Part shown: positions 1 through 41,191 of the stretch, one piece after another
Layout: each line of letters opens with the position of its first letter
Position numbering within the stretch: position 1 is the first letter of the stretch
Assembly: GCA_021772915.1 (NCBI GenBank)
Contig: JAJFLB010000070.1
Location: 1 to 41,191, forward strand
DNA from: Gammaproteobacteria bacterium
Lineage (GTDB): Bacteria > Pseudomonadota > Gammaproteobacteria > Xanthomonadales > SZUA-36
Reading direction: 5' to 3'
Length of the DNA: 41,191 nt
Program-made: the position numbers and the translations under genes
Notes under the pieces: generated by a model
Database searches by the model: none
What the model saw: the letters and a program-made list of their open reading frames with translations, nothing else
Told to the model about the DNA's origin: nothing

Positions 1-141
1 CATGACCAAAGACGAGCTGTCGTATCGGGCGCTGCACTCGACCGGCGACTACGCTCTGATCCTCGAGGGTGTCGTGAACAAGGGTCTGAAAACGGCCTAC
101 GACACCGTGCGCCAACCCTGGCGCGCCGTCGCGGTGCAGAA
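1..141. repeat. Left copy of 141-bp terminal direct repeat
   Basis: These 141 bases recur without mismatch at 41051-41191. Both copies lie inside the same reading frame of the protease-capsid fusion gene, so joining them restores one intact gene. This is the signature of a circular assembly graph reported with one k-mer of overlap, giving a 41,050-bp unit genome. It is unlikely to be a biological terminal repeat. Confidence 0.95.
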
Positions 142-26470: not shown

Positions 26471-26742
26471 TCGCGCCCGCTGAGGTGTTCCACCCCGAGC
26501 GCCGATCGAAGTGCCGCGGCTGCGGCGCCCCGATCGTGTTCGTGAAGCACAGCAGGACTGGCAACACCATGCCGCTCGAGCTGCTCGGCGCAGAACCCGC
26601 CGCGCCCGGTGTGGACGGGCGCCCGCGGTTCGCTCTAATGCCGCACCACGCTCGTTGTCCCAAGGCCAGCGAGTTCAGAAAACGCCAAGCCCGGCGGCGC
26701 CAACAGCCGGGCCTGTTCGACGAAATAGAGAGGAAACCCTGA
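26458..26742 (+). CDS. Small zinc-ribbon protein upstream of ParB-like gene
   Basis: A 94-residue protein from GTG 26458, which has GGAGG 7 bases upstream. An ATG at 26467 in the same frame would instead give a 4-base overlap. The domain reads CRGCGAPIVFVKHSRTGNTM, PLELLGAEP and HHARCPKASEFRKRQARRRQ: a CxxC knuckle, a 'G..mPl' strand and a second half-site (H..CP.A..FR). This is a recurrent small zinc-binding protein of phage early regions. It ends in TGATG with the ParB-like gene. It is probably nucleic-acid binding, by analogy. Confidence 0.65.
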   Translation: MARMIAPAEVFHPERRSKCRGCGAPIVFVKHSRTGNTMPLELLGAEPAAPGVDGRPRFALMPHHARCPKASEFRKRQARRRQQPGLFDEIERKP

Positions 26743-28406
26743 TGGAAGCAACCGAACGAAACGCGCTCGGGCTCGCGCTCGAGCTGATCGACGAGAACCC
26801 CAACAACCCCCGCGCGGCGATCACCGACGACGACGTGCAGGACCTGGCCGCGAGCATGCGCGAGCAGGGGCTGCTGCAGCCGGTTGTCGTCGTGCCCGAC
26901 GGGGACCGCTACCGGCTCCGCATCGGCCACCGACGCGTGCACGCTGCGCGAATGCTGGGCTGGACCGAGATCCGGGCCGAAGTCGACGAAGCGAGCGACG
27001 CGAGCCAGGACCTGGTCGTGGCTGTCGTGGAGAACACGCAGCGCGAAGGCCTGGGAGCTCTGAACGAGGGCCGGGCTTGCCAGCAGATGCTCGAGGAAAA
27101 CAACGGCGACGTGGACCTGGTCGCCAAACGGGTCGGACGCTCGCGCCGCTGGGTGGCGCGCCGGGCCAACCTGACCACGCTGGCGCCGGAGGTGATCACG
27201 CTGCTGTCAGATCCGCCGACAGCTCGAAAGGTCAAGTCTGGCCCGGGATGGGGAGGCGGCACCGGTCAGGCAACGCTCGGCGAGCGCGCCCAGCTCTGGC
27301 CTGCCGCATGGCTCGAGGAAATCGCGCTGCTCTCGAAGCCCGACCAGGTCGAGCTGATCGACCTGCTGCAGGATGAGCCGTGCGATACCCTCGAGGAGCT
27401 GCGCTTTCTGATGCGCGACCAGCTGCGCGCGCTGTCGATGGCGCCGTGGAACCTCGAGGACGAGAAACTGGTGCCGGCGGTAGGTGCGTGCATCAGCTGC
27501 GACCGGCACAGCGCCGCCTCGCCGGGGTTGTTCGACAACCCGGAAACGGAGGGCATCAAGGGCGCCACCTGCCGGGATGGTCGGTGCTTCCTGGGCAAGC
27601 TACGGGCCTGGCGGCAGGCTCGGGTCGAAGAGGCCCGCGAGAAGCATGGCGCCGACCTGGCGCTGATCGCGAAAAGCCCGCACCAGCTCGAGGAGGGCGT
27701 GGATTACGAGGGCAAGCAAAGGCCCGGCTACTTCTATTCCTGGTCGGCTGCCAAAAAGGCCGACAAGGGCGCCCGGCCGGTCATCGTGCTCGACGCGGAC
27801 ACGCCCAAGGTGCGCTGGATGAAGCCGGGCGGCGGCGGCGCTCCCTCGGGCTCGTCGAACGGCTCGGAGCCGGGCAAGCCGAAGACGTTGCGGGAGCGGC
27901 GCGCCAACATGAACCGGCGCCGGCGGGTCAAGGCTGGCGATGCTCTGCACGAATTCGTGGTCGAGCTGACCGAGGCCGACGTGTTCACTGCCGACGACTG
28001 GCACGCGCACGGGGTCCAGCTGGCGCTGATCTTCGGGCTGCAGTACCCGGCCTGGAGCCGCGACGTCGACAAGCTGAGCGCGCTCGAGGGTTCGGCAGCG
28101 CGGCAACGTCTCTGGGAGGGCATGGTGGGCGAGATCGCGAGCAGCGCGCGCTCGGCGATGGCGGACGGGACCAAGCCGGACGAGCCTGCCTTGGACGTGC
28201 TGGACGGGCTCGTGGGCACCGATTGGAAAGAGGCGCTAGCGAAGTCGACCGCGGATCTGCCCGACCCCAAGAGCTGGGCGAACCTGAAAGCGGACGGAAC
28301 GCCGAAGGCGGCGCCGAAGAGCAAGGCCAAGCGCAAGGCGAAGGCCTCGCGCAAGGGCAAAACCACCACTGAGCCGGTCGACGCCGGCGAGGAGCCGACC
28401 CAATGA
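26742..28406 (+). CDS. ParB-like protein with C-terminal zinc cluster
   Basis: A 554-residue protein. The N-terminal ParB/Srx domain has 'NPR' (residues 22-24), the GHRR box (62-65) and the ENTQRE box (97-102), matching nucleotide-binding motifs of ParB-type CTPases. An HTH follows near 121-145 (VDLVAKRVGRSRRWVARRAN). Cys250, Cys253, Cys277 and Cys282 make a zinc knuckle of the sort found in some plasmid/PRTRC-type ParB relatives. The C-terminus is Lys/Ala-rich. There is no ParA gene nearby. It may act in partition, as a transcription regulator or at the candidate origin. GAGAGGAAACC precedes its TGATG start. Confidence 0.8.
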   Translation: MEATERNALGLALELIDENPNNPRAAITDDDVQDLAASMREQGLLQPVVVVPDGDRYRLRIGHRRVHAARMLGWTEIRAEVDEASDASQDLVVAVVENTQREGLGALNEGRACQQMLEENNGDVDLVAKRVGRSRRWVARRANLTTLAPEVITLLSDPPTARKVKSGPGWGGGTGQATLGERAQLWPAAWLEEIALLSKPDQVELIDLLQDEPCDTLEELRFLMRDQLRALSMAPWNLEDEKLVPAVGACISCDRHSAASPGLFDNPETEGIKGATCRDGRCFLGKLRAWRQARVEEAREKHGADLALIAKSPHQLEEGVDYEGKQRPGYFYSWSAAKKADKGARPVIVLDADTPKVRWMKPGGGGAPSGSSNGSEPGKPKTLRERRANMNRRRRVKAGDALHEFVVELTEADVFTADDWHAHGVQLALIFGLQYPAWSRDVDKLSALEGSAARQRLWEGMVGEIASSARSAMADGTKPDEPALDVLDGLVGTDWKEALAKSTADLPDPKSWANLKADGTPKAAPKSKAKRKAKASRKGKTTTEPVDAGEEPTQ

Positions 28407-31274: not shown

Positions 31275-31687
31275 ACCTACGAGCCGCGATCGATAACACC
31301 AGGCGGCTGGTGCGCCAGTACACCCGGGGTGCTCAACGGACCGAGCTCGAGGCCGCGCTCGGCGAGGTTCGACGGCTGCAAGTGCGGCTTGAGGATGACC
31401 TGACCCGCGCTCTGAATCGCACCCGCGGCCGAGCAGCCCGGCGTGACGGCGGGCCATCGCTCGAGGCGATCTTGCAGCTGCTGCACGAGAACCTGGCCGA
31501 GACAGGCGCCCACCTGCAGGCGGGAACGGACGGCTGGTCGGTCGTGATGGTCTGGGACGCACCCGTGTCCGAGGACCTGCTGGCCGAAGGCTCAACGCTG
31601 GACAAGCTCGTGCGGGCCTGGTCCGCGCGCGGGTTCAGCCTTCAATACGGAAAGCCCGCCGGGATGGTCGAGCCCGAGGGCTCCTAA
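31271..31687 (+). CDS. Coiled-coil protein of unknown function
   Basis: A 138-residue protein from ATG 31271 (ATGA overlap), last of the operon. The N-terminal 70 residues are a basic coiled-coil helix (RTELEAALGEVRRLQVRLED). The C-terminal part is a small alpha/beta domain (GWSVVMVWDAPVSEDLLAEG, then a GFSLQYGKPAGMVEPEG end). A small hairpin (GGCCAG/CTGGCC, 31693-31708) follows the stop without a T-run. No family was recognised. Confidence 0.55.
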   Translation: MNLRAAIDNTRRLVRQYTRGAQRTELEAALGEVRRLQVRLEDDLTRALNRTRGRAARRDGGPSLEAILQLLHENLAETGAHLQAGTDGWSVVMVWDAPVSEDLLAEGSTLDKLVRAWSARGFSLQYGKPAGMVEPEGS

Positions 31688-31741
31688 AGCCAGGCCAGCA
31701 ACCTGGCCGAACAGGCTGGGATGACCTACCAAGAGGAAACG

Positions 31742-32065
31742 ATGGCCAAGAACCTGAAACGCATGCGAGAGCTGAGCACGGAGCTGGCCGCGCTCATCGA
31801 CGCCGAGGGCGAGGTGGCAGATCAGCTGCAGCTCCCGCCAGAGCGGGAGATCGCGGGCTGCACACGCGAGGCGGATTACATCGGCGACGCTGTGGGCGGG
31901 CCCGCTGAACGTGCACGGCTGCGAGACTGGTCACTAGCGCAGGTGCTCTCGGCCGTGGACGAGCTCGAAGCTCTGGCCGGGCTGCAGCTGCCTGATGGTC
32001 CGCGGGTGGGCCAGCTGGCAGAGCTGGTGCGCAAGGGCGTCCGCGGGTCCTTCCCCGGGGTCTGA
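31742..32065 (+). CDS. Small helical protein
   Basis: A 107-residue protein at ATG 31742, chosen because GAGGAAAC precedes it. An in-frame ATG at 31721 would add seven residues. It is helical and acidic (LSTELAALIDAEGEVADQLQ, then LAQVLSAVDELEALAGLQLP). No motif was recognised. It precedes the operator-like inverted repeat and the Acb2-like gene. Confidence 0.55.
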   Translation: MAKNLKRMRELSTELAALIDAEGEVADQLQLPPEREIAGCTREADYIGDAVGGPAERARLRDWSLAQVLSAVDELEALAGLQLPDGPRVGQLAELVRKGVRGSFPGV

Positions 32066-32107
32066 GAGACATGGGTGACGCGGACCACCGAAAGCGCCTA
32101 GTTAGCC

Positions 32108-32129
32108 GGTGGTAACCGGCGTTACCACC
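32108..32129. promoter_or_regulatory. Perfect inverted repeat, operator candidate
   Basis: GGTGGTAAC (32108-32116) and GTTACCACC (32121-32129) are perfect arms around CGGC, lying 18 bp upstream of a TACAGT -10-like box. This is the size and position of a dimeric repressor operator. No T-run follows, so a terminator is unlikely. Confidence 0.55.
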
Positions 32130-32146
32130 CCGGCGGGTTTCGTCGC

Positions 32147-32152
32147 TACAGT
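32147..32152 (+). promoter_or_regulatory. -10-like box (TACAGT) for the Acb2-like gene
   Basis: TACAGT is preceded by TTACCA (32122-32127, within the inverted repeat), which could act as the -35 at 19-bp spacing. The leader is about 80 bases and ends in GGAGGAAACC. Confidence 0.4.
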
Positions 32153-32241
32153 TGGGGCGCTGGCCGGGTAGGCCCGGGCGCGGCCGCGTCCGGTTCAAGG
32201 CCGAACCCGAGCCAGCCCAACAACCCGAACCGGAGGAAACC

Positions 32242-32643
32242 ATGCGCGAGTTCACCGACGAGCAGCTGGACGAGATCGTGGCCGAGCTGCGCGGCACTCA
32301 CGGGCCTGGCCCGTTGGGCGAGGCCGTCGCGGCAATCGAACAGCTGCGCGGCCAGGCCGCCCAGCCGTCTGCACCCCGATCGGAAAACCCGCCGGACTGG
32401 GCAGCGCGCCCGCAGATCACCGAGCGCCAGCTGCACAACTGGTTTCGCTACCACAACCCCGCCGAGCATCAACTCGGCCAGGCCGAGGCCGTGACCCGGT
32501 ACGAACAGCTGCGCGCCGGCGGTGGCGAGCTCGCTCGGCTGATCGTCGAGCTGACCCCGCCCGGTGCCGACCAGGCCGCGGCCGTCCGGCTGGTTCGTCA
32601 GGCTGTGATGACGGCCAACGCGGCGCTGGCCTGCGACTCCTGA
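32242..32643 (+). CDS. Acb2/Tad1-type hairpin-domain protein, putative anti-CBASS/anti-Thoeris sponge
   Basis: A 133-residue protein, with its start fixed by GGAGGAAACC. Residues about 58-131 show the Acb2/Tad1 hairpin layout: LHNWFRYHNPAEHQLGQAEA, RYEQLRAGGGELARLIVELT, then PPGADQ and VRLVRQAVMTANAALAC, i.e. 'f.YH.P...q..rY..iR..g..la..i....P......ai..iR.avm.ANaaiA'. Known members form hexamers that sequester cyclic (oligo)nucleotide signals of CBASS or Thoeris, blocking host abortive defence. The N-terminal 55 residues are an extra helical segment and Pro/Ser linker. It has its own operator/promoter region. Domain identity is likely; the ligand is unknown. Confidence 0.75.
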   Translation: MREFTDEQLDEIVAELRGTHGPGPLGEAVAAIEQLRGQAAQPSAPRSENPPDWAARPQITERQLHNWFRYHNPAEHQLGQAEAVTRYEQLRAGGGELARLIVELTPPGADQAAAVRLVRQAVMTANAALACDS

Positions 32644-32665
32644 AACCCCCAACCCCGAGAACCAC

Positions 32666-33922
32666 ATGAATCTGCGCAAGCTCCTTTCTCCGCTGTTCGC
32701 GATCGCGCTGCTGGCAGGCACGCCCGGAGCCGAAGAATTCCACGTCTACCCGGACCGGCTCGAGGACGCGGCCGGCCAGGTCGTGCCGAAAAGCTGGAAG
32801 TTCAAGCCGAGCCAGTCATTCGCCCAGGCGCTGTTCCTGGCCGGCGCGACTGCAGGCGGCGACGTTGTTTGGATCCACGGCGACGTGGTCGGCAACGGCA
32901 ACGTGACGCTCGGGCAGTACGCCAACCCGCTCGGCAACAAGCTGGGCGGACTGGTCGGCTGCCAGGTCCTGGCCGCGACTTCCGGCGCGCGCATTCCTGG
33001 GCTGAACGTGTTCCAGCAGCACGAGGTCTCGGGGCTGTTGTTCCGCGGCCTCGAGATCGCGGCGAACACCGACAACCAATGCGTGAAGTGGGGCAAGAAC
33101 CAGCCCGCAGAGCACCGCGATTTCGTGTTCGTGGACTGCCGTTTCGACGGGTTCTCAACGCAGGTAGGGCAAGCCGCGTGGGGCCTGCAGGTGGGCGGGC
33201 CGATCGTCGGCCTGGACGTAGTCGATTCCGATTTCGTCGACTTCCGAGAGCACGGCGGATACATGCACGGCGCGGCCTGGTCGACCTACGACGGCTGCAC
33301 GTTCACGCGCTGCGGCTACACCGGCACGCAGTGGACGAACCGCGCGTGGGAGGGCCGCCCTTCGTACGGAACCAACACGGTCAAAGACTGCACCTTCACC
33401 CAATGCGGTGAGGGCGGCGCTGCGTCCGTGACTGTCGGCGGGCACACCGGGCTATTCGTCGTCGAGAACATCACCGTGGACACCGACCACCCGACTGGTG
33501 GCGTGCTGTTCTACTGGGAGGGCCCGAAGCCGAAAAACACGCAGGGCCCGACCGACGTTGGCGCGTGGCGCGACGAAAACGGTTGGGGTATCTCCGAGGT
33601 CATGATGATCGGGCGCTCGTCGATCCGGATGGGTGCGAAGGCTTTCTACCTGACGTCCTTCAACGATGTCGGCCGCGTGACGATCGGCCCGATGCAGTTT
33701 CACGCGACCGACGCGCCCAAGCCGTGCATTTGGATCCACCGACCCAAGACCGGCCGCGGTATCGGGCAGCTGGTGCTGGGCATGGACTCCGGTTCCGATG
33801 CCGTCTGGAACGGGAACGAAAAGGTGCGAGAGGTCGACACGGCTTGGCCCGACTCTAAGGTGGACGACCACGTGCAACAGCGCCCGCCGGCGCGAGCGCT
33901 GCAGCCTGCTGGCGGTGGCTGA
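32666..33922 (+). CDS. Secreted right-handed parallel beta-helix protein
   Basis: A 418-residue protein with a classical signal peptide (MNLRKLLSPLFAIALLAGTP, likely cut after GA at residue 22) and no lipobox. The rest has short repeating coils rich in Gly, Asn, Val and Asp (GLLFRGLEIAANTDNQCVKW, FVFVDCRFDGFSTQVG, VDSDFVDFREHGGYMHGAAW, TFTRCGYTG, TVKDCTFTQCGEGGAAS), typical of pectate-lyase/tailspike-like beta-helices that bind or cleave polysaccharides. Sec export is unusual for a phage protein. It lies between the Acb2-like gene and the methyltransferase. It could alter the surface of the infected cell or be released as a depolymerase. No catalytic residues were assigned. Confidence 0.75.
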   Translation: MNLRKLLSPLFAIALLAGTPGAEEFHVYPDRLEDAAGQVVPKSWKFKPSQSFAQALFLAGATAGGDVVWIHGDVVGNGNVTLGQYANPLGNKLGGLVGCQVLAATSGARIPGLNVFQQHEVSGLLFRGLEIAANTDNQCVKWGKNQPAEHRDFVFVDCRFDGFSTQVGQAAWGLQVGGPIVGLDVVDSDFVDFREHGGYMHGAAWSTYDGCTFTRCGYTGTQWTNRAWEGRPSYGTNTVKDCTFTQCGEGGAASVTVGGHTGLFVVENITVDTDHPTGGVLFYWEGPKPKNTQGPTDVGAWRDENGWGISEVMMIGRSSIRMGAKAFYLTSFNDVGRVTIGPMQFHATDAPKPCIWIHRPKTGRGIGQLVLGMDSGSDAVWNGNEKVREVDTAWPDSKVDDHVQQRPPARALQPAGGG

Positions 33923-35272
33923 TTGAGCGGATCGAACGGAATGCCCAGCGCGCAGCGCATCGAGCTGCGCCCGTTGGCTGAGGTCCTCGAGGGGCGGCAG
34001 GCGCGCAACGCCAAACTGCATCCGCAGGAACAGGTCGAGGCGCTGGCCGCCTCTATTCTGGAGTTCGGTTTCCTGGACCCGGTGCTGCTGGATCACGGCC
34101 AGGTGATCGCGGGGCACGGCCGGTTGGCCGCGGCCGAGCTGCTGAACCTCGAACGGATCCCGGTCGTTCCGCTCGACCACCTGAGCGAGGGCCAGCGCCG
34201 CAAATTCTTACTGGCCGCCAACAAACTGGGCGAAACCGGTTGGAATGCCCAGCTGCTGACGGACGAGCTGCGAGCGCTGACCGGCGAGGGTGTCGACGTC
34301 GGCACGCTTGGCTGGAACGATCGCGAGCTGTCGCGGCTGCTCGAGGAATCGGAGCTGGCCATGCTGCGCGAAATGCGGGGCCTCGAGGTTCCGCCCGACA
34401 TGGGTAGCTCACCCGATGAGCCCGACCGCGTGCCGGCCGGCGAGTCGTTCGGCCCGGTCAAGCGCCCCACCGTTCAGCCCGGCGACTGCTGGCACCTGGA
34501 CGGGCACCGCGTGCTTTGCGCCGACAGCACCAAGCGCGAGCAGCTCGAGCCGTTGCTTGGCAAGCGTCGGCAGGTCGCCGCGGTGGTGACCGATCCGCCC
34601 TATGCAATCTTCGGCTCGAGCACCGGCGCCGCGCCATCGGTGGCCGACGACCGCATGGTGGCACCGTTCTGCCATAGCGTGCTCGAGCTCGTCGACGACG
34701 CGCTGGAAATGCACGGACACGCGTACGTGTTCTGCGACTGGCGCAGCTATCCGACTTGGTGGCAGGCCATGCGCGGCCTGAGCCTGGTTCCGAAAAACCT
34801 ACTGGTGTGGGACAAGGGGCCCGCCGGCGTCGGCTCGTTCTGGAACAACAGCCACGAGCTCGTGGTGATGTTCGCGCGCGAGCTCGAGAAGCGCATGAGC
34901 GGGCAGCACCGCTCGGGCACGTCCAAGAAACCGCGGCGCGTGCACGGGTCCAGCAACGTGCTGCGCTTCGATCGCGTGCGAGGTGGTGCCAAACAGCACA
35001 GCGCCCAAAAGCCGCAGGCGCTGGTGCACGAGCTCGTCACCAATAGCACCTACGAGGGCGAGCGCGTGCTGGACCCGTTCGCTGGCTCGGGCACCACCCT
35101 GATGGCCTGCGAAGAGATCGGCCGCGCGTGCTGGGCCGTCGACATCGAACCCGGTTGGGCGCAGCTAGCCATCGAGCGCTGGCAGCGTGAGACCGACGCG
35201 CGCGCGCTGCTCAACGGCAAGCGCGGCCAGACCCTCGAGGCCGTCAAGGCTCGTCGGCGCAAGAAACGGTAG
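33923..35272 (+). CDS. ParB-domain DNA methyltransferase
   Basis: A 449-residue protein from TTG 33923, overlapping the upstream stop region. A second in-frame start is ATG 33941. Residues 11-115 form a ParB/Srx-like domain (ASILEFGFLDPVLLDHGQVI, AGHGRLAAAELL). The methyltransferase domain follows: DPPY at 224-227 (motif IV), a substrate region with AQKP near 361-364, and DPFAGSG at 384-390 (motif I, SAM binding). The order IV then I marks the beta class of N6-adenine/N4-cytosine enzymes. It probably modifies phage DNA against restriction, with specificity unknown. The adjacent terminase genes raise a possible link to packaging sites. Confidence 0.9.
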   Translation: MSGSNGMPSAQRIELRPLAEVLEGRQARNAKLHPQEQVEALAASILEFGFLDPVLLDHGQVIAGHGRLAAAELLNLERIPVVPLDHLSEGQRRKFLLAANKLGETGWNAQLLTDELRALTGEGVDVGTLGWNDRELSRLLEESELAMLREMRGLEVPPDMGSSPDEPDRVPAGESFGPVKRPTVQPGDCWHLDGHRVLCADSTKREQLEPLLGKRRQVAAVVTDPPYAIFGSSTGAAPSVADDRMVAPFCHSVLELVDDALEMHGHAYVFCDWRSYPTWWQAMRGLSLVPKNLLVWDKGPAGVGSFWNNSHELVVMFARELEKRMSGQHRSGTSKKPRRVHGSSNVLRFDRVRGGAKQHSAQKPQALVHELVTNSTYEGERVLDPFAGSGTTLMACEEIGRACWAVDIEPGWAQLAIERWQRETDARALLNGKRGQTLEAVKARRRKKR

Positions 35273-39671: not shown

Positions 39672-41191
39672 ATGACCGCTTCGGCCATGACGATCGATCT
39701 GGCGCCGCATATCCGCGCGCTCGGCACGCCGCGCAGCGTCGATAAGAAGGCTCGCACCGCGAGCGGGGTGGTGGCTTCCACCGGTCCGTCGTTCGAGTGG
39801 GACGAGGACATCGGCCATTTCGTCGAGTTCCTGAGTTTCGTTCCGGGCCACGTGAACCTGCAGCGGCTCGAGCTCGGCGCGCCACTGCTCGACTCCCACG
39901 GCCGGCACGATCGTGCGGCCAAAATGAACGGGCCGAGCCTCGAGGATCAATACGGGGTCGTGATCGGCACGACCCTCGAGCCCGACGCTCTGGTGTGCGA
40001 GTTCAAATTCGACGGCACCGAGCGGCGCCGGTGGGTGTTCGATAACGTCGCGGATGGAATCTTCCGCAACTTCTCGCTGGCCTACAACGTGCACCGCTAC
40101 GAAGCGATCGGTCAGGACGAAGAGCTGCAGCTGCGCGCGCTGCACCCCGAGCTGGGCAGCGTTCCGGCCGGCGTTCCCTTCCTGCGGGCGGTGTCGTGGA
40201 CACCGTTCGAAGTCACACTGTTGCCCATTCCGCAAGATCCGACCGCGCGCCTGCGCGGGTTCACGGGCACGGATCGCCAACCCTGTAGTTTCGTCGGGTT
40301 GACCGGCGACCAAGCCATGACCATCAAGAGCGGCGCGAAGACGCGCAAACGCAGCATGGAAGCCGACCCCAACGCTGCAGGCACGGCGGCCGCCGCGGCC
40401 GTGGAGCAGACCGAGGAAGGCACGACCGAAACCACCGAGGGTGAAAAGCCCACGGACGACGAAGTGCGCGCCCAGGCCGAAGCGGCGACCGCTGCCGCTG
40501 CAGCTGCCGCGTCGACCGATGCGGAGGGCGCCGAGGATGGCGCGGCCGCGACCGGCACCGAGTCCACCGCATCCGAGGCTGCCGCGGAAACTGTCACGGC
40601 CGGAACCAGTCAGCGATCCATGACCACGGCCAAGCCCGACGAGTACGCGCTCGAGCTCGCCAAGCTGACGCGCATCGCGTCGGATGTCGTGCCCGACCAG
40701 CTGGCATTCGTCGAGGGGCACCTACGAACCCGCACGCCGCTGCCAGCGGTGCGCGACCAACTGCTGACGCTCCGCGCTCAGCGTTCAGAGCAACCCGCCG
40801 GCGGGCTCGCCGGCAAGACGGAGACGCGCGGCATGCACACGACTCGACCCGGACACGTCAGCGTTGGCGAGGACGAGCAGCACCAGCACGTCCGAGGCAT
40901 CACCACCTGGCTGCAGCATCGCTGCGGCTACCTTCCTGCCGTCGACGGCCGCCGGGCGGATCTGCCCGAGCACGCTCGCGGGTTCCGGAACATGGGCCTG
41001 CTCGACGTTGGGCGCTTCCTGCTAGAGCAGCGCGGGATCTCGACCCGCAACATGACCAAAGACGAGCTGTCGTATCGGGCGCTGCACTCGACCGGCGACT
41101 ACGCTCTGATCCTCGAGGGTGTCGTGAACAAGGGTCTGAAAACGGCCTACGACACCGTGCGCCAACCCTGGCGCGCCGTCGCGGTGCAGAA
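39672..41191 (+). CDS. Prohead protease-major capsid fusion, N-terminal part (protease and linker)
   Basis: This gene runs off the right end and continues in frame at 2-919 (765 residues in total). Residues 1-215 are a prohead maturation protease of the U35/S78-like type: His76 in LLDSHGRHD and Ser135 in FRNFSLAY are the likely catalytic pair, with the following acidic strand (TPFEVTLLPIPQDPTARLRG) completing the domain. Residues about 235-325 are a low-complexity Ala/Glu/Thr region that probably acts as scaffold or delta domain and is removed. The remainder begins the capsid domain. A single polyprotein keeps protease, scaffold and shell in fixed ratio. The start is ATG 39672, with no Shine-Dalgarno; a second in-frame ATG (39687) is five codons later. 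Confidence 0.87.
   Translation, partial: MTASAMTIDLAPHIRALGTPRSVDKKARTASGVVASTGPSFEWDEDIGHFVEFLSFVPGHVNLQRLELGAPLLDSHGRHDRAAKMNGPSLEDQYGVVIGTTLEPDALVCEFKFDGTERRRWVFDNVADGIFRNFSLAYNVHRYEAIGQDEELQLRALHPELGSVPAGVPFLRAVSWTPFEVTLLPIPQDPTARLRGFTGTDRQPCSFVGLTGDQAMTIKSGAKTRKRSMEADPNAAGTAAAAAVEQTEEGTTETTEGEKPTDDEVRAQAEAATAAAAAAASTDAEGAEDGAAATGTESTASEAAAETVTAGTSQRSMTTAKPDEYALELAKLTRIASDVVPDQLAFVEGHLRTRTPLPAVRDQLLTLRAQRSEQPAGGLAGKTETRGMHTTRPGHVSVGEDEQHQHVRGITTWLQHRCGYLPAVDGRRADLPEHARGFRNMGLLDVGRFLLEQRGISTRNMTKDELSYRALHSTGDYALILEGVVNKGLKTAYDTVRQPWRAVAVQ
41051..41191. repeat. Right copy of 141-bp terminal direct repeat
   Basis: Identical to 1-141. Residues 461-506 of the protease-capsid fusion are encoded in both copies. 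Removing one copy closes the circle at 41,050 bp. Confidence 0.95.

What the first reader, a model, noticed from the sequence alone, without database searches (positions are those of the whole stretch)
32108..32643. Operator-controlled Acb2/Tad1-like nucleotide sponge with N-terminal extension
Seen: residues 58-131 follow the Acb2/Tad1 hairpin pattern (F.YH.P, P..AD, R.AVMTANAALA) in a 133-aa protein. A perfect 9-bp inverted repeat precedes its promoter-like box. Known: Acb2 binds CBASS cyclic nucleotides and Tad1 binds Thoeris gcADPR. Inference: an anti-defence gene with its own control, whose extra 55 residues could tune oligomer or ligand.
Basis: partly seen in the sequence, partly recalled or inferred. 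Interest (0 to 1): 0.75.

Follow-up and report, generated by a model that had tools for sequence, protein, structure and literature searches.

The report
Phage Acb2/Tad1-type sponge, extended variant
A phage gene here encodes a small helical protein of the family that soaks up bacterial alarm molecules; it belongs to a branch of that family for which no test was found and whose binding-pocket residues differ from the known sponges, so what it binds is an open question.

Summary
Window 32242-32643 encodes a 133-aa protein whose C-terminal half is an Acb2/Tad1 hairpin domain (PF24729, 32 bits, cut-off 27). It is neither a plain Acb2 nor a plain Tad1. It falls in a distinct branch, here called "ADQ" after its core motif, which holds 76 of 182 F.YH.P-type sequences compared; 73 of the 76 come from IMG/VR contigs. 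The four hexamer-interface residues of T4 Acb2 are kept in P0001. Of five cGAMP contacts only the tyrosine and, as Arg, the basic residue are kept. My reading: an oligomeric nucleotide sponge whose ligand is untested and probably altered. The 58-residue N-terminal extension is coding, has a good ribosome-binding site, is predicted to be two helices, and has no relative that I found. "Operator-controlled" is not supported: the 9-bp inverted repeat exists, but the window holds six such repeats against 5.3 expected, no promoter-like site was found, and 0 of 72 relatives carry its core upstream. The contig closes to a 41,050-bp circle; its binning with this host is doubtful.

The parts
32242..32643 (+). 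gene for the 133-aa hairpin protein (P0001), stop included
   Evidence: ORF; PF24729 over cut-off; phrog_1454
32416..32640 (+). Acb2/Tad1 hairpin part, residues 59-133: short helix, loop with F.YH.P, two long helices
   Evidence: tblastn relatives match from about residue 59 on; AlphaFold2 helices 61-69, 81-104, 109-131; domain alone
32470..32487 (+). six-residue insertion (residues 77-82) in the loop after F.YH.P, shared only with L131 among the 37 sequences of alignment A6
32242..32415 (+). N-terminal extension, residues 1-58, predicted helices 6-19 and 24-40 then a linker with a short helix 52-55
   Evidence: no relative found
32232..32236 (+). ribosome-binding site GGAGG
   Evidence: sequence
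32108..32129 (.). perfect 9-bp inverted repeat with 4-base loop in the gap upstream; function unknown, not shown to be an operator

Best explanation
P0001 is a phage counter-defence sponge. The C-terminal helical hairpins assemble, probably into a hexamer as in Acb2, and bind a nucleotide immune second messenger between subunits without cleaving it, so that the host's effector is not switched on. Shown by computation: domain membership, coding extension, branch, hexamer-interface residues kept, tyrosine and basic residue of the dinucleotide pocket kept, other contacts replaced. Inferred from characterised relatives: oligomer, binding, anti-defence role. Inferred and weakest: that the branch-wide replacements (R to A at 109, E to D at 110, T to R at 116, E to R at 119, W to T at 124, P0001 numbering) give a ligand range unlike that of Acb2 or Tad1.
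For: PF24729 above cut-off, and matched by 37 of 37 members of alignment A6 at E<=0.001. Profile comparison of the ADQ branch with the T-type (GREK) branch: 99.5% probability, E 1.2e-22; the GREK profile matches PDB 9ptq 'Acb2 homolog 43' at 2.8e-8 and Tad1 chain 7uav at 0.0021. Predicted: a short helix plus two long helices, as PMC10419184 describes Acb2 (passage). In the viral structure library 8 of the first 12 rows are named Acb2/Tad1 hairpin proteins, but the best E of any row is 0.055. Hexamer-interface residues of T4 Vs.4 (L29, A66, A73, A77; PMC10097602, passages) map to L97, A114, A121, A125 (last helix); across the branch A114 is kept in 72, A121 in 74 and A125 in 76 of 76, while 97 is L in 38, F in 33, M in 5. 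cGAMP contacts Y8 and K23 map to Y70 (Y in 71 of 76) and R91 (R in 76 of 76). Neighbouring genes of relatives are unlike each other: 14 Pfam families, each hit by 1 of 74 neighbouring ORFs scanned, as expected of a mobile accessory gene.
Against: Three of the five cGAMP contacts of T4 Vs.4 (H11, R79, F82) map to P73, A127, A130. R67 and T74, invariant in the 7 Acb2 sequences aligned, correspond to A109 and R116; T68M of T4 Acb2, at the position equivalent to T74, lowers binding affinity (PMC12657230, passage). Direct profile comparison of the ADQ branch with Acb2 proper is not significant (0.6%, E 0.099), nor with T4 Vs.4 (0.3%); the link runs through the GREK branch. The ADQ profile finds no PDB chain at E<=5. 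Foldseek lists no Acb2 or Tad1 chain for either model. No SMODS cyclase was found in the bin, though the bin may not be the host.
Confidence: 0.68

Rival explanations
1. An Acb2/Tad1-type sponge with the ordinary known ligands (CBASS cyclic di- or trinucleotides, or gcADPR); the branch's changed residues are neutral or compensated. (This shares the sponge step with the best explanation and differs only in ligand.)
For: Same Pfam domain and predicted hairpin; tyrosine and basic residue kept; PMC12043709 (passages) reports broad and varying ligand ranges within Acb2 and Tad1.
Against: Positions not used to define the groups split almost cleanly: 110 is D in 76 of 76 against E in 100 of 101, 109 is A in 67 of 76 against R in 100 of 101. 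That suggests selection for something different. Sampling favoured the two extremes, so the split may look cleaner than it is.
Confidence: 0.3
2. A hairpin-fold protein that has left nucleotide binding and now does something else, for example scaffolding or regulating a phage process through its N-terminal helices.
For: Three contact residues lost; no direct profile link to Acb2 proper; an N-terminal extension with predicted helices seen in no relative.
Against: The branch is tightly conserved at interface and pocket-equivalent positions in unlike neighbourhoods; most of the 75 rows printed have five or fewer residues ahead of the domain.
Confidence: 0.22
3. A repressor-controlled anti-defence gene.
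For: A perfect 9-bp inverted repeat at 32108-32129 ends 112 bases before the start codon; 40 of 2000 shuffles of the gap hold such a repeat; the gap folded as RNA is more stable than 198 of 200 shuffles (z -3.0).
Against: No promoter-like site (a simple consensus scan); window-wide count of such repeats at chance, 6 against 5.3; single copy in the window; 0 of 72 relatives carry GGTAAC..GTTACC upstream, 1 of 72 any perfect 9-bp stem with loop 3-8 against 0.5 expected. An RNA stem is as likely as an operator.
Confidence: 0.07

Closest known systems
Acb2 (PaMx33 ORF24, T4 Vs.4), CBASS cyclic-nucleotide sponge
   Same: Hairpin domain, short helix before it, Tyr and basic residue of the dinucleotide pocket, the four hexamer-interface residues named for Vs.4
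   Different: Lacks the residues equivalent to Vs.4 H11, R79, F82 and to PaMx33 R67 and T74; has a 58-residue N-terminal extension; no direct profile significance
Tad1 (for example 7uav), gcADPR and cyclic-nucleotide sponge
   Same: C-terminal hairpin; similar length (PDB chains of 123-138 aa); an Asn three residues after the Met of the last helix (N126, aligned with the last N of ...EEALMWMN)
   Different: Tad1 is described with an N-terminal antiparallel beta-sheet (PMC12043709, passage); here the N-terminal part is predicted helical
F.YH.P T-type (GREK) branch of the hairpin family (Paenibacillus, Gordonia and mycobacteriophage proteins, some annotated as cyclic nucleotide sequestering)
   Same: Colinear over 67 columns, 99.5% profile probability; F.YH.P loop and final ANAA.A
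   Different: Core SREKxxAxTxLEEAxMWANAAIAR against SADQxAAIRKVREAVMTANAAIAC here; mean identity of P0001 34% to it against 52% to its own branch

Membership tests
Acb2/Tad1 hairpin domain (PF24729) | profile score above the curated cut-off | tested here: met
   32 against 27 bits; 33.7 in the own-genome search
Acb2/Tad1 hairpin domain (PF24729) | two long helices after a short helix | tested here: met
   AlphaFold2 models, mean pLDDT 86.2 and 87.8; prediction only
Acb2 in the narrow sense | cGAMP contacts as in T4 Vs.4 (Y8, H11, K23, R79, F82) | tested here: not met
   2 of 5 kept (Y70, and R91 for K23); P73, A127, A130 differ (last helix)
Acb2 in the narrow sense | R67 and T74, invariant in the 7 Acb2 sequences aligned | tested here: not met
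   A109 and R116
Acb2 in the narrow sense | hexamer-interface residues (L29, A66, A73, A77 of Vs.4) | tested here: met
   L97, A114, A121, A125 in P0001; 97 varies in the branch (L 38, F 33, M 5 of 76)
Acb2 in the narrow sense | homohexamer that binds cyclic nucleotides | not testable with these tools
   needs protein; the tool folds single chains only
Acb2 in the narrow sense | match to a solved Acb2 structure by fold | tested here: inconclusive
   not among Foldseek's rows, nor among the 11 entries shown by VIA-align; hairpin proteins head the viral library list, best E 0.055
Tad1 | N-terminal antiparallel beta-sheet before the hairpin | tested here: not met
   predicted helices 6-19 and 24-40, no strand; no relative aligns over the extension, so this rests in effect on one sequence
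Tad1 | binds gcADPR | not testable with these tools
   needs protein
ADQ branch (named here) | D110, R116, R119, T124 in P0001 numbering, and grouping on a tree | tested here: met
   76 of 76 on one side of a split, support 0.922; with six switch columns left out 74 of 76 and one T-type sequence, 0.943

The most novel reading that the evidence does not exclude
The ADQ branch is a widespread set of phage sponges, seen mostly in metagenomic viral contigs, that kept the hexamer of Acb2 but rebuilt the pockets for a different immune messenger, possibly one not yet assigned to any known sponge; P0001 adds a helical N-terminal module to it.
Probability: 0.33. Interest if true: 0.72.

Novelty: new variant of a known kind. 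Interest (0 to 1): 0.45.

Why it matters
Sponges show which nucleotide alarms phages must silence. A sizeable branch of the same fold with a conserved but different pocket, here drawn mostly from metagenomic viral contigs, would point to a messenger or defence not yet covered. It can be tested with one expressed 70-residue protein and a panel of ligands.

Tried and rejected
Relatives of the whole protein: none by tblastn in 50,697 phage records (E<=0.01) or 72,556 plasmid records (E<=1); none by single-protein scans of IMG/VR (28 pattern matches, 0 confirmed) or GTDB contigs (340 matches, 0 confirmed); no PDB chain by phmmer. Among 41 related genomes the only match besides its own was weak (E 0.003) and inside a 1026-codon frame; set aside. 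PF24729 itself rings in 2 of 39 genomes of the family and 8 of 369 of the class, 7 of these over the cut-off, own genome included in both. The N-terminal part alone: no phage match at E<=10, no other frame of the window.

Extension in relatives: tblastn spans of L134, L158, L162, L174, L185 and L202, among others, reached back to residues 13-41 of P0001. For L185 and L202 the open frame begins after those spans begin, so they include chance segments; the others were not followed up. Longer N-termini occur in some relatives (for example L133, L166, L188, L200, L208 and several loci with Cys pairs); they look unlike that of P0001, and starts there were picked by a simple rule.

Host clues: SMODS 0 of 1; SAVED 0 of 1, silent in the controls too, so uninformative; four TIR_2 matches, not identified further because four stretches of the bin have 46.6-53.7% G+C against 68.1% for the phage. 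Those stretches were chosen for their TIR genes and may be atypical.

Synteny: 10 TerL relatives in IMG/VR (25-43% identity in best segments); no hairpin gene in the DNA held for any of the 10, some of which hold little upstream DNA. Too distant to date the gene's arrival. Rfam: no match in the window. tRNA: none.

Sampling caveat: the sequences compared are the 80 best matches to P0001, the 80 best to a Paenibacillus phage protein, 25 relatives of a Streptomyces phage protein and 14 phage records; intermediates are under-sampled. L208, Lactococcus P1046 and L044 are partly intermediate. Of 211 sequences collected, 17 repeats of identical letters and 12 Acb2/Tad1-side ones were left out, giving 182. 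An alignment of Acb2-side sequences to the combined profile was poor and was not used.

Full report
The observation. Window 32242-32643 holds a 133-codon gene with GGAGG five bases before its ATG. The other in-frame starts ahead of the hairpin, a GTG at codon 13 and a TTG at codon 25, have no such site. The C-terminal half matches Pfam PF24729, Acb2/Tad1 hairpin domain, at 32 bits against a curated cut-off of 27, and phrog_1454 at 8.6e-12. G+C by codon position is alike in the N-terminal 58 residues and in the hairpin part, so the extension looks coding.

The inverted repeat. GGTGGTAAC-CGGC-GTTACCACC is at 32108-32129, once in the window even with three mismatches allowed. Perfect 9-bp repeats with loops of 3-12 number 6 in the window against a mean of 5.3 in 30 dinucleotide shuffles. 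With arms of at most five G or C, shuffles give a mean of 0.13 and the window has two. Of 2000 shuffles of the 176-base gap, 40 hold such a repeat. No sigma-70-type promoter was found in 31600-32700, although such a scan may miss promoters of a G+C-rich host. Of 72 relatives with at least 150 upstream bases, one has a perfect 9-bp stem with loop 3-8 (0.5 expected) and none the core GGTAAC..GTTACC. The gap folded as RNA is more stable than 198 of 200 shuffles. So the repeat is there; its being an operator is unsupported.

Which branch. A scan of IMG/VR with alignment A3, led by P0001, found 571 pattern matches, of which 346 encode a relative by tblastn at E<=1e-3 (relative to the candidates only); the best 80 were kept. 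The four best rows are 48-58% identical in their best segments. They share a core unlike that of the F.YH.P proteins of Paenibacillus phages and mycobacteriophages. In 182 distinct sequences, 76 fall in what I call the ADQ branch, 101 in the T-type or GREK branch, and 5 in neither. Grouping used positions 116, 119 and 124, so counts there are circular. Positions not used to group show the same split: 109 is A in 67 of 76 against R in 100 of 101, 110 is D in 76 of 76 against E in 100 of 101, 131 is C in 50 and L in 22 of 76 against R in 98 of 101. On a FastTree tree all 76 ADQ sequences lie on one side of a split with support 0.922. With six switch columns removed, 74 of 76 still do, with one T-type sequence among them, support 0.943. 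P0001 is 52% identical on average to its branch and 34% to the other. Its nearest neighbour is L131 (support 0.558), which shares a six-residue insertion in the loop.

Where the branch occurs. Of the 76, 73 are IMG/VR loci, one is P0001, and two are cultured-phage records, Tunturi_1 and ScoobyDoobyDoo; the sampling was mainly of IMG/VR. A tblastn search of cultured-phage records with one ADQ member found 91 records, all under 60% identical; 53 are Paenibacillus phages, whose two fetched members (Pahemo, Tripp) are T-type. I fetched four records after that search: two are ADQ, two (S-2L, Chidiebere) have the T-type core. How rare the branch is in cultured phages is therefore not settled.

Link to the characterised sponges. 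The ADQ profile aligns with the GREK profile at 99.5% probability, E 1.2e-22. The GREK profile aligns with Acb2 proper at 75%, E 2.4e-5, and finds PDB 9ptq 'Acb2 homolog 43' (2.8e-8) and Tad1 entries (from 0.002). ADQ directly against Acb2 proper is not significant, nor is ADQ against T4 Vs.4, and the ADQ profile finds no PDB chain at E<=5. Pfam's own model takes in 37 of 37 ADQ members scanned.

Residue test. PMC10097602 (passages) gives for T4 Vs.4 the cGAMP contacts Y8, H11, K23, R79, F82 and the hexamer-interface residues L29, A66, A73, A77. Vs.4 was read from the T4 GenBank record. The register of the last helix is the same in MAFFT and in two weak profile alignments; that of the first part rests on MAFFT and on the profile alignments with PaMx33-type Acb2. 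The interface residues map to L97, A114, A121 and A125, all kept in P0001. Of the contacts, Y8 is kept as Y70 and K23 as R91; H11, R79 and F82 become P73, A127 and A130. The last two are A in the GREK branch too (101 and 97 of 101), so they mark the whole F.YH.P group. Changes special to the ADQ branch are R to A at 109, E to D at 110, T to R at 116, E to R at 119, W to T at 124. R67 and T74 of PaMx33, invariant in the 7 Acb2 sequences aligned, are the equivalents of 109 and 116. T68M in T4 Acb2, at the T74-equivalent, is reported to decrease binding affinity (PMC12657230, passage). From recall only: R67 belongs to the trinucleotide pocket of Acb2.

Structure. AlphaFold2 on 73 aligned sequences gives helices 6-19, 24-40, 52-55, 61-69, 81-104 and 109-131, mean pLDDT 86.2, pTM 0.57. 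The domain alone gives 87.8 and 0.77. The extension rests in effect on a single sequence. In the viral structure library, 8 of the first 12 rows are named Acb2/Tad1 hairpin proteins, but no E is under 0.05. PDB searches did not return Acb2 or Tad1.

Surroundings. The contig's ends are identical over 141 bases, which most simply means a circle of 41,050 bases. It encodes a Mu-like contractile tail, a lambda-type portal, a gpA-type terminase, a ParB-like protein and a ParB-methyltransferase fusion. No integrase was seen among the proteins scanned, which are not all of them. The sponge gene lies between a 114-codon ORF of unknown function and a 418-codon protein with a weak beta-helix match, upstream of methyltransferase and terminase, all on the + strand. 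The phage has 68.1% G+C, four stretches of the bin 46.6-53.7%, so the host suggested by the bin is doubtful. Of 74 neighbouring ORFs of ADQ relatives scanned, at most 14 match any Pfam family at 1e-5, and no family is met twice, which fits a gene that moves between unrelated phage cassettes.

Literature. Seen: part 1 of 2 of the full text of PMC13348362 and PMC11953737; passages of PMC11722364, PMC12043709, PMC12657218, PMC12657230, PMC10419184 and PMC10097602; listings. The papers behind (Huiting 2023, Cao 2024) are not held. Searches for 'Acb2 homolog' (1 paper, a review), for 'hairpin domain' with Acb2 and Tad1 (0) and for Acb2, homologs, cyclic and metagenomic since 2025 (0) found no test of this branch in the held library, which lacks most subscription papers.

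Verdict. A real, somewhat divergent member of a known kind. The interest lies less in this gene's supposed operator or extension than in the branch it exposes.

Noticed in passing
window 1-141 and 41051-41191: The two ends are identical over 141 bases: the contig most likely closes to a circle of 41,050 bp, so a complete phage genome rather than an integrated prophage.
   Followed up: yes
window 1-41191: G+C 68.1% against 46.6-53.7% in four stretches of the same genome bin: the phage may be mis-binned or from another host.
   Followed up: partly
window 33923-35272: ParB N-terminal-like domain (weak in Pfam, strong in PHROGs) fused to an N6/N4-type DNA methyltransferase, next to the terminase genes; a second, 631-aa ParB-like protein at 26511-28406.
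   Followed up: no
window 32666-33922: 418-aa protein with a signal-peptide-like start (by eye) and a weak right-handed beta-helix match (1.3e-3, below the cut-off), just downstream of the sponge gene.
   Followed up: no
loci L065, L084, L093, L208: Some hairpin relatives carry N-terminal parts with paired Cys motifs like small zinc ribbons (by eye): the domain may be fused at its N-terminus to different modules in different phages.
   Followed up: no
L216:1501-1698 (cyanophage S-2L): A hairpin-family frame lies just ahead of and overlapping the start of a gene annotated as tail assembly protein, and is not annotated as a gene of its own.
   Followed up: no
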